Shown in pieces: positions 55,668 through 58,544 of a stretch of 64,000 nucleotides of DNA (positions within the stretch are counted from its first letter, which is position 1; each line of letters starts with the position of its first letter). The stretch is from positions 67,507 to 131,506 of the forward strand of contig NZ_JAKTNU010000001.1 of the NCBI RefSeq assembly GCF_022760955.1, in the 5' to 3' direction. The DNA comes from Thermus neutrinimicus (GTDB lineage Bacteria; Deinococcota; Deinococci; Deinococcales; Thermaceae). A program made the translations under genes and the position numbers. The notes below the pieces were generated by a model. The model saw nothing but the letters and a program-made list of their open reading frames with translations, was not told where the DNA came from and made no database searches.

Positions 55668-58544
55668 ATGCGCTTTGAGAAAATCGCCCCCTACACCTAC
55701 CGCATCCCCCGCCAGGGAAAAATGCGGGTGGACGCGGTTTTCTTCGCCTCGGAGGAGATTCTTAAGGACCTCGAGGGGGAAAACTACGCCTCCTTGCAGC
55801 AACTCATGAACGTGGCCACCCTGCCAGGGATCGTGGAGCCCGCTTTGGCCATGCCCGACATCCACTGGGGCTACGGCTTCCCCATCGGGGGGGTGGCGGC
55901 CTTCGACCCCGAGGAAGGGGGGGTGGTGAGCCCGGGAGGGGTGGGGTTTGATATCAACTGCCTGCCTGCCGGCACCCGCGTACTCTTTCATGACCGCTAC
56001 ACCCGCCCTATAGAGGAGGTGGCGAGGGAAGGAGAACCCCTCCTCACCGTATGGCGGCTTGGGGAAAAACCTGAGGCAGGCAAAGCCCTCCTCCTCCTCT
56101 CCCGGGAAGCGGAAACCCTGGTGCGCCTCCGCACCGAAGGTGGGTTCATCCTGGAGGCCACCCCGGATCATCCCGTCTACACCCCCTCGGGGATGCGCCC
56201 CATAGGCACCCTGAAAAAGGGAGACCTGGTGGCCATCCACCCCTTCCAAGGCTTTCCCCACGAACCCCCTCCGTCCCTCACCCTTCTTAGCGAAGAAAGG
56301 GCCCAAGCCCTAGGCCTTGCCCTGGGGTTCCCCCAGGCAGCAGACGTGTTGAAAACGAAGGGGCTCCTTCCCCTGCGGACAGACCACCCTCGCCTACCCG
56401 CTATCCTCCGCCTTTTGGGCTACGCCTTGGGGGATGGAACCCTTTACCGGTCCCAAGGCAGGGGGTACCTGGTGCTCTATGGGGAGGAAGGAGGACTCCT
56501 GGAAGCCAAGGAGGACCTCAAGGGTCTGGGCTTCCAGGCCGGGGGCCCTTACGCTCGGGTACGAAACCACAGCTTCCGAGCACGGACCTTCACCTACCGG
56601 GAGGCTAGCCTTAAGATTTCTTCCCGGGCTTTGTTCCTCCTTCTCCACGCCTTAGGCCTTCCCGAAGGCCCAAAGGCGCAAACCGCTTTTGCCTTACCCG
56701 ATTGGCTCTTCTCCCTTCCCGCTTGGCTTAAAGCCAACTTTCTAGCAGGACTGTTTGGAGCTGAGCTCTCCGCTCCAAGGTGGGTAAGCGGACATGGGTA
56801 CAACCTCGCCTCTCCTGTGCTTTCCCAGTCCAAGCGGAAAAGCCTGTTGGAAAGTGGCCGAACCTTCATGGAAGCCCTGGCCTGCTTAATGGAAAGCTTG
56901 GGCCTGGAAGTCCAGTCCCTACGTGAGGAAGTGGATTGGGAGGAACCGGCTGATCCTTCCCACCGCTTCAAACTGATCCTCCGTAGTACACCCCAAAACC
57001 TCAGCCTTCTCTACGAGAGGGTGGGCTATGCGTACGCTCCCCAAAAGGCCTGGCTAGCCCAGGTTGCCGCCTTCTACCTACGCCTAAAAAGGGCCCACCT
57101 AGAAGCTCGGAAAAGCCAGGCCGAGGACGTCTTAGCCCTACGACAGGCAGGCCTAGGGCCAAAGGGTATTGCCGCCACCCTAGGCCTCCCGCAACGCTTC
57201 GTGGAGCGTACCCTGTACGAGAAGCGAGGCAACTTCCGCCCCTGGGGATTTCCCACCTTCCCTGAGTTCCTCCAAAGGGCCGGCCCCATGCTTTTTGACA
57301 GGATAGTGGCCATGGAAACCGTTCCCCATGGGGGAAGGGTTTACGACCTCTCCATGGCTCATGAGGGACACAACTTCGTCGCCGAAGGGTTTGTGGTCTC
57401 CAACTGCGGGGTACGCCTCCTGGCCTCCACCCTCACCCTGGAAGACCTCCTCCCCCGCCAAAGGGAACTGGCGGATGCCCTCTACCGCCTCATCCCCTCG
57501 GGGGTGGGAAGCCAGCGCAAGGACGTGCGCTTCAGCAAGAAGGAGCTTAAGGAAATCCTCAAGGAGGGGGCGGGCTGGCTCATCCGCAGGGGCTTCGGCT
57601 ACCCGGAGGACTCCCACTTCATCGAGTCGGAGGGCCGCCTCCCTTGGGCCAACCCCGACAAGGTTTCGGACAGGGCCTTTGAACGGGGAGCTCCCCAGAT
57701 CGGCACCCTAGGAAGCGGGAACCATTTCCTCGAGGTGCAGTACGTGGACCAGATCTACGACGAGGAAGCCGCCGAAGCCTTTGGCCTCTTCCCCAACCAG
57801 ATCACCGTCCTCATCCACACGGGAAGCCGGGGCCTCGGCCACCAGGTCTGCCAGGACTATGTGGAAAGATTCCTCAAGGTAGCCCCCCGCTACGGCATCG
57901 AGCTGGTGGACAAACAGCTGGCGGCAGCCCCCATCAAGAGCCCGGAGGGCCAGGACTACCTCCAGGCCATGGCCGCCGCCGCCAACTTCGCCTTCGCCAA
58001 CCGGCAGCTCATCGCCCACTTCGTGCGGGAGGCCTTCGAGGTGGTGGGCTTCCCGCCCAGGGAGCACGGCCTAAGGGTCCTCTATGACCTGGCCCACAAC
58101 AACGCCAAGTTTGAGGAGCACGGAGGAAAACGGGTTCTGGTGCACCGCAAAGGGGCCACCCGGGCCTTTGGCCCAGGGAATCCCGAGATCCCCCCGGAGT
58201 ATCGGCATGTGGGCCAGCCCGTGCTGGTACCCGGGGATATGGGCCGCTACTCTTACGTGCTTTCGGGAACGGAGAAGGCCATGGCGGTATCCTTCGGCTC
58301 CAGTTGCCACGGGGCTGGGCGCAAGATGAGCCGCCACCAGGCCAAGCGGGTGGCCCGGGAGCGCAACCTGATCAAGGAGCTTGCGGAAAGGGGCATCCTG
58401 GTGCGGGCGGCCACCAAGGCTACGGTGGACGAGGAACTGCCTGAGGCCTACAAGGATGTTTCCGTGGTGGTGGAGGCGGTCCAGGGAGCCGGGATCGGCA
58501 AGAAGGTGGCCCGCTTAAGGCCCCTCATCGTGGTAAAGGGCTGA
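55668..58544 (+). CDS. rtcB: RNA ligase RtcB, interrupted by an intein
   Basis: The precursor is 958 residues; the exteins together are 476, the normal size. RtcB joins 3'-phosphate or cyclic-phosphate ends to 5'-OH ends with GTP and Mn. The N-extein (1-97) ends SPGGVGFDIN; the C-extein starts at C580 with CGVRLL, so spliced RtcB has the Mn-ligand Cys at position 98 as in Pyrococcus. GSGNHFLEVQ and SSCHGAGR (the guanylated His) are intact. ATG 55668 (MRFEKIAPY) is chosen over a start 18 nt upstream. Without splicing the enzyme would be inactive. Confidence 0.95.
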   Translation: MRFEKIAPYTYRIPRQGKMRVDAVFFASEEILKDLEGENYASLQQLMNVATLPGIVEPALAMPDIHWGYGFPIGGVAAFDPEEGGVVSPGGVGFDINCLPAGTRVLFHDRYTRPIEEVAREGEPLLTVWRLGEKPEAGKALLLLSREAETLVRLRTEGGFILEATPDHPVYTPSGMRPIGTLKKGDLVAIHPFQGFPHEPPPSLTLLSEERAQALGLALGFPQAADVLKTKGLLPLRTDHPRLPAILRLLGYALGDGTLYRSQGRGYLVLYGEEGGLLEAKEDLKGLGFQAGGPYARVRNHSFRARTFTYREASLKISSRALFLLLHALGLPEGPKAQTAFALPDWLFSLPAWLKANFLAGLFGAELSAPRWVSGHGYNLASPVLSQSKRKSLLESGRTFMEALACLMESLGLEVQSLREEVDWEEPADPSHRFKLILRSTPQNLSLLYERVGYAYAPQKAWLAQVAAFYLRLKRAHLEARKSQAEDVLALRQAGLGPKGIAATLGLPQRFVERTLYEKRGNFRPWGFPTFPEFLQRAGPMLFDRIVAMETVPHGGRVYDLSMAHEGHNFVAEGFVVSNCGVRLLASTLTLEDLLPRQRELADALYRLIPSGVGSQRKDVRFSKKELKEILKEGAGWLIRRGFGYPEDSHFIESEGRLPWANPDKVSDRAFERGAPQIGTLGSGNHFLEVQYVDQIYDEEAAEAFGLFPNQITVLIHTGSRGLGHQVCQDYVERFLKVAPRYGIELVDKQLAAAPIKSPEGQDYLQAMAAAANFAFANRQLIAHFVREAFEVVGFPPREHGLRVLYDLAHNNAKFEEHGGKRVLVHRKGATRAFGPGNPEIPPEYRHVGQPVLVPGDMGRYSYVLSGTEKAMAVSFGSSCHGAGRKMSRHQAKRVARERNLIKELAERGILVRAATKATVDEELPEAYKDVSVVVEAVQGAGIGKKVARLRPLIVVKG
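55959..57404 (+). mobile_element. RtcB intein with LAGLIDADG homing endonuclease
   Basis: Intein of 482 residues (precursor 98-579) inserted directly before the RtcB catalytic Cys. It starts CLPAGTRVLF (Cys1); block B is TPDHPVY (T165, H168). The endonuclease motifs are LLGYALGDG (249-257, D256) and LAGLFGAE (359-366, E366). A helix-turn-helix-like segment (GPKGIAATLGLPQRFVERTLY) follows. The C-terminal block is HNFVAEGFVVSN: the usual penultimate His is Ser578, then Asn579, then Cys+1. G+C is about 50% in the 60 bases at 56701 and 72% in those at 58021, pointing to transfer. Confidence 0.93.

What the first reader, a model, noticed from the sequence alone, without database searches (positions are those of the whole stretch)
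55959..57404. RtcB intein with Ser-Asn instead of His-Asn at its C-terminus
Seen: a 482-residue intein at the active-site Cys98 of RtcB, with block B TxxH and Cys+1 intact, but the penultimate residue is Ser578, not His. The penultimate His normally assists Asn cyclisation; some inteins tolerate its loss through compensating residues. The precursor cannot act until spliced, so slow or conditional splicing would control RNA repair.
Basis: partly seen in the sequence, partly recalled or inferred. Interest (0 to 1): 0.68.

Follow-up and report, generated by a model that had tools for sequence, protein, structure and literature searches.

The report
Ordinary RtcB intein ending in Ser-Asn
A self-removing protein insert (intein) sits at the active-site cysteine of this Thermus bacterium's RNA-repair ligase RtcB; its unusual second-to-last residue (serine instead of histidine) is real but is the normal state in most of its relatives across bacteria and archaea and occurs in the fast-splicing Npu DnaE intein, so it gives no sign of slow or regulated splicing.

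Summary
The rtcB gene (55668-58544 +) carries a 482-aa intein (55959-57404) at Cys98, ending Ser481-Asn482|Cys+1, with block A Cys1, block B T68-P-D-H71, block F Asp463 and His471, and two LAGLIDADG motifs intact. The interpretation does not hold. Ser at the penultimate position (G:6) is not a recent loss. Of 68 inteins read at the same RtcB site, 56 have Ser, 11 His, 1 Lys. All 15 in the window's genus, 28/28 in Halobacteria and 5/5 in Chloroflexota have Ser; only a DPANN set is mixed (5 Ser, 10 His). Ser is kept in copies whose endonuclease has decayed. Ser-Asn is also the end of the Npu DnaE intein, which splices with a half-life of about a minute, and Ser is the G:6 residue of class 2 KlbA inteins; about 5% of functional inteins lack the penultimate His. 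The RtcB Cys98 site is documented from Pyrococcus, and NCBI has a family model for intein-containing RtcB. It is most likely a normally splicing class 1 intein with a homing endonuclease. Nothing here supports conditional control of RNA repair. Low interest.

The parts
55668..58544 (+). rtcB precursor gene (958 aa before splicing, 476 aa after)
   Evidence: Pfam PF01139 on both sides
55668..55958 (+). N-extein (97 aa, ends GFDIN)
   Evidence: PF01139 positions 1-55
55959..57404 (+). intein, 482 aa, Cys1 to Asn482
   Evidence: AlphaFold model pLDDT 93.3 matching solved intein-endonucleases
55959..55961 (+). block A nucleophile Cys1 (precursor Cys98)
   Evidence: invariant in alignment
56160..56171 (+). 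block B T68-P-D-H71
   Evidence: His71 invariant in 60 same-site inteins
56412..56438 (+). first LAGLIDADG motif (LLGYALGDG, acidic D159 present)
56742..56768 (+). second LAGLIDADG motif (LAGLFGAEL, acidic E269 present)
57195..57209 (+). R413-F-V-E416-R motif; R413 is present in all 52 Ser-type and in none of the 8 His-type inteins of the aligned set
   Evidence: not separable from ancestry
57339..57377 (+). block F VYDLSMAHEGHNF with Asp463 (F:4) and His471 (F:13)
   Evidence: both invariant
57399..57404 (+). block G Ser481-Asn482
57405..58544 (+). C-extein starting with Cys+1 (becomes the mature active-site Cys98), with stop codon
   Evidence: site equals Pyrococcus RtcB Cys98 splice junction (PMC4150793)

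Best explanation
This is an ordinary class 1 (Cys1) intein with a LAGLIDADG homing endonuclease, living at the known Cys98 site of RtcB. It is expected to splice by the standard four steps. The Asn-cyclisation step works with His471 in block F and a native, long-fixed Ser at the penultimate position, as in Npu DnaE. The precursor is inactive only until it splices, which is probably prompt at the growth temperature of the host. Shown: the motifs, the site, conservation of Ser, and patchy intein presence in otherwise intact rtcB genes. Inferred: splicing rate, endonuclease activity, and the lack of regulation.
For: Motifs and coordinates. Ser-Asn in 15/15 inteins of the genus, 28/28 Halobacteria, 5/5 Chloroflexota, 5/15 DPANN. 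Ser lies on both sides of the deepest split of the intein tree, minimum 3 changes of state. Ser codons TCC and TCA both occur with Ser kept. Ser-Asn is kept in a 401-aa copy with a shrunken endonuclease and in a copy that lost both acidic catalytic residues (L022, L017). dN/dS is about 0.14-0.15 in the splicing and endonuclease parts, 0.10 in the C-extein. AlphaFold model with pLDDT 93.3 matches solved intein-endonucleases TliVMA, PI-PfuI and PI-SceI. Npu DnaE ends GFIASN in PDB 4lx3, 2keq, 4kl5. Review: about 5% of functional inteins have another G:6 residue, class 2 inteins all have Ser there, and Npu DnaE half-life is 1 min or less (PMC4031507).
Against: No splicing was measured; some other inteins lacking the His splice better when it is put back (PMC4031507). 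The Arg at B:11 that assists Asn cyclisation in Ssp DnaE is absent here (B:11 is Pro). dS values are near saturation.
Confidence: 0.9

Rival explanations
1. The Ser slows Asn cyclisation so that RtcB maturation is conditional (temperature, metal or redox) and the intein acts as a switch on RNA repair.
For: The intein interrupts the active-site Cys (PMC4150793), so splicing is required for activity; in some inteins lacking the His, splicing improves when it is put back (PMC4031507).
Against: Ser is shared by inteins of thermophilic Thermus, halophilic archaea and Chloroflexota, whose conditions differ widely; about 40% of the same genus lacks the intein in an intact rtcB, so any switch is dispensable; Npu DnaE has Ser and is ultrafast.
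Confidence: 0.06
2. The intein is degenerating: loss of the penultimate His is a step towards a dead or cleavage-only element.
For: Deviation from the His-Asn consensus; one genome (G060) has a stop or frameshift inside the intein.
Against: Ser is old and conserved; all other splicing residues and both endonuclease acidic residues are intact in the window copy; dN/dS about 0.15.
Confidence: 0.03
3. Sequencing or assembly error at the Ser codon.
For: None.
Against: Independent genomes of the genus all carry TCC-AAC there.
Confidence: 0.005

Closest known systems
RtcB (PH1602) intein of Pyrococcus horikoshii
   Same: Inserted at RtcB Cys98; mature RtcB is a product of protein splicing with Cys98 as the junction (PMC4150793; PDB 1uc2).
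   Different: Its intein sequence and penultimate residue were not retrieved here.
NCBIfam NF038162, intein-containing RtcB family protein; Natrinema intein-containing RtcB (QCC61297.1)
   Same: Full-length match 2-958 with 1037 bits; same site, Ser-Asn end in the Natrinema protein.
   Different: Below the model's curated cut-off of 1150 bits; intein about 33% identical to the Natrinema one.
Npu DnaE split intein
   Same: Ends in Ser-Asn, with block F Asp and His.
   Different: Split, no endonuclease, different host gene.
Class 2 inteins (Mja KlbA)
   Same: Ser at the penultimate position (PMC4031507).
   Different: They start with Ala1 and skip the first acyl shift; this intein has Cys1 and is class 1.

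Membership tests
Class 1 intein | Cys or Ser at position 1 | tested here: met
   Cys1, TGC 55959-55961; invariant
Class 1 intein | Block B TxxH | tested here: met
   T68-P-D-H71
Class 1 intein | C-terminal Asn followed by Cys/Ser/Thr +1 | tested here: met
   Asn482-Cys+1
Class 1 intein | Penultimate His (common, not universal, so not an excluding feature) | tested here: not met
   Ser481; about 5% of functional inteins differ here (PMC4031507)
Class 1 intein | Hint fold | tested here: met
   AlphaFold pLDDT 93.3; Foldseek to Mtu RecA intein splicing domain rmsd 1.9 over 96 columns and to TliVMA intein E 2.3e-17
Class 1 intein | Actually splices | not testable with these tools
   Needs an expression experiment
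LAGLIDADG (DOD) homing endonuclease intein | Two LAGLIDADG motifs with acidic residues | tested here: met
   LLGYALGDG and LAGLFGAEL
RtcB Cys98-site intein family (NF038162-like) | Same insertion site and homologous intein | tested here: met
   Alignment of 60 same-site inteins, 28-93% identity to the window
RtcB Cys98-site intein family (NF038162-like) | Score over the curated cut-off of NF038162 | tested here: not met
   1037 bits against a cut-off of 1150; so it is a relative of that model's proteins, not a formal hit
Class 2 intein | Ala at position 1 | tested here: not met
   Position 1 is Cys

The most novel reading that the evidence does not exclude
The RtcB-site inteins form an old, inter-domain class 1 subfamily in which Ser at G:6 is functionally maintained, with a compensation of its own (for instance the R413/E416 motif or the +3 extein Val) that tunes Asn cyclisation to RtcB, possibly making maturation of the ligase conditional.
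Probability: 0.08. Interest if true: 0.5.

Novelty: new member of a known kind. Interest (0 to 1): 0.15.

Why it matters
Mostly as a correction: a missing penultimate His should not be read as defective or regulated splicing without looking at relatives. A minor positive is that the RtcB-site family offers natural Ser-, His- and Lys-ending versions of one intein in one host protein, a clean set for measuring how the penultimate residue affects Asn cyclisation.

Tried and rejected
Looked for a phage or plasmid source: none in viral contigs or phages; only one hit in the plasmid collection, a Natrinema replicon of 987 kb. Looked for residues that go with Ser versus His: R413, E416 and the +3 extein residue separate the two groups, but only 2 independent contrasts on supported branches exist, so this cannot be told from shared ancestry. 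Considered class 2 membership (Ser G:6) and rejected it because Cys1 is present. Looked for an Arg at B:11 as in Ssp DnaE: it is Pro here. The paper searches found no study of a Thermus RtcB intein; the library holds open-licence papers only.

Full report
What is there. The rtcB gene runs from ATG 55668 to 58544 on the + strand and encodes 958 residues. Pfam RtcB matches on both sides of an insert that starts at Cys98 (55959) and ends at Asn579 (57404). The insert is 482 aa and begins CLPAGTRV, has TPDH in block B, VYDLSMAHEGHNF in block F, and ends GFVVSN, followed by CGVR. Intein-free relatives have the same sequence without the insert, GFDINCGVR, so the joined product is an ordinary RtcB of 476 aa.

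It is an intein with a homing endonuclease. NCBIfam's N- and C-terminal intein models match, and its model of intein-containing RtcB matches over the full length, though below its curated cut-off. A structure predicted from 59 same-site sequences has mean pLDDT 93.3, and its best matches among solved structures are the endonuclease-bearing inteins TliVMA, PI-PfuI and PI-SceI, with the splicing part matching the Mtu RecA mini-intein. Both LAGLIDADG motifs keep their acidic residue.

Distribution. In the window's genus 15 of 27 genomes carry this intein in rtcB and 11 have an uninterrupted rtcB; one further genome is fragmentary. Named records identify the genus as Thermus. The patchy presence at one site is what a homing element gives (established knowledge of inteins). 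The same site is occupied in Halobacteria (27 of 242 genomes sampled, plus a Natrinema plasmid), Chloroflexota (5 of 301) and a DPANN phylum (matches in 20 of 156 genomes, not all with a readable junction).

The penultimate residue. Of 68 same-site inteins whose C-terminal junction I could read, leaving out repeats of one locus, 56 have Ser, 11 His and 1 Lys. By group: the window's genus 15 Ser of 15; other members of its class 3 Ser, 1 Lys, 1 His (the His one sits in a different RtcB, with CGNA after the junction); Halobacteria 28 Ser of 28; Chloroflexota 5 of 5; DPANN 5 Ser and 10 His. The sample leans towards relatives of the Thermus intein, because the profile was built from them. On a tree of 60 distinct inteins, built without the last two residues, Ser occurs on both sides of the deepest split and at least 3 changes of state are needed (midpoint root, so the direction of change is not fixed). 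So Ser is old here. It is not a recent loss in this genome.

Is the Ser harmless? Block F Asp463 and His471 and block B His71 are invariant across the set. Two copies whose endonuclease has decayed, a 401-aa copy (L022) and one with Gly in place of both acidic residues (L017), keep the splicing motifs and Ser-Asn. Rough dN/dS is 0.14-0.15 for the splicing and endonuclease parts and 0.10 for the C-extein; dS is near saturation, so these are approximate. Ser-Asn is the natural end of the Npu DnaE intein, as solved structures show, and that intein has a half-life of 1 min or less (PMC4031507). The same review states that about 5% of functional inteins have another residue at this position, that class 2 inteins all have Ser there, and that putting His back helps some inteins and harms others. 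The same genome's DnaE intein, just outside the window, ends in the usual His-Asn.

The site is known. Mature Pyrococcus horikoshii RtcB is a product of protein splicing with Cys98 as the splice junction (PMC4150793), and its structures are in the PDB along with that of the close Thermus homologue TTHA1785 (that TTHA is Thermus thermophilus is from my own knowledge).

Verdict. The precursor should be inactive until spliced, but nothing suggests that splicing is slow. What remains open is the actual splicing rate and what compensates for the missing His. R413 and E416 and the +3 extein Val go with Ser, but only two independent contrasts exist, too few to tell from ancestry.

Noticed in passing
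L132 (G000:C1:63000-70500, minus strand, just left of the window): The same genome has another intein in DnaE (1674-aa open frame), ending His-Asn before Ser+1, with the usual penultimate His.
   Followed up: partly
L022:1282-2484 (-): A same-site rtcB intein in a sister genus shrunk to 401 aa, with the LAGLIDADG motifs damaged and the splicing motifs intact: an intein on the way to a mini-intein.
   Followed up: partly
L021 / L072 (G060, Thermus parvatiensis RL): The rtcB intein reads in two frames with a stop or frameshift inside the endonuclease part; either a sequencing error or a broken rtcB.
   Followed up: no
L114: A DPANN-phylum RtcB intein lies inside the haloarchaeal clade on the intein tree, suggesting transfer between a haloarchaeon and a small-genome archaeon.
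   Followed up: no
L020:1501-2946 (-): A Thermaceae metagenome genome has Lys-Asn at the C-terminus of the same-site intein, an unusual penultimate residue.
   Followed up: no
window:57195-57209: RF(V/I/L)ER motif in a predicted helix between the endonuclease and block F: R413 is present in all 52 Ser-type inteins and absent in all 8 His-type of the aligned set.
   Followed up: partly
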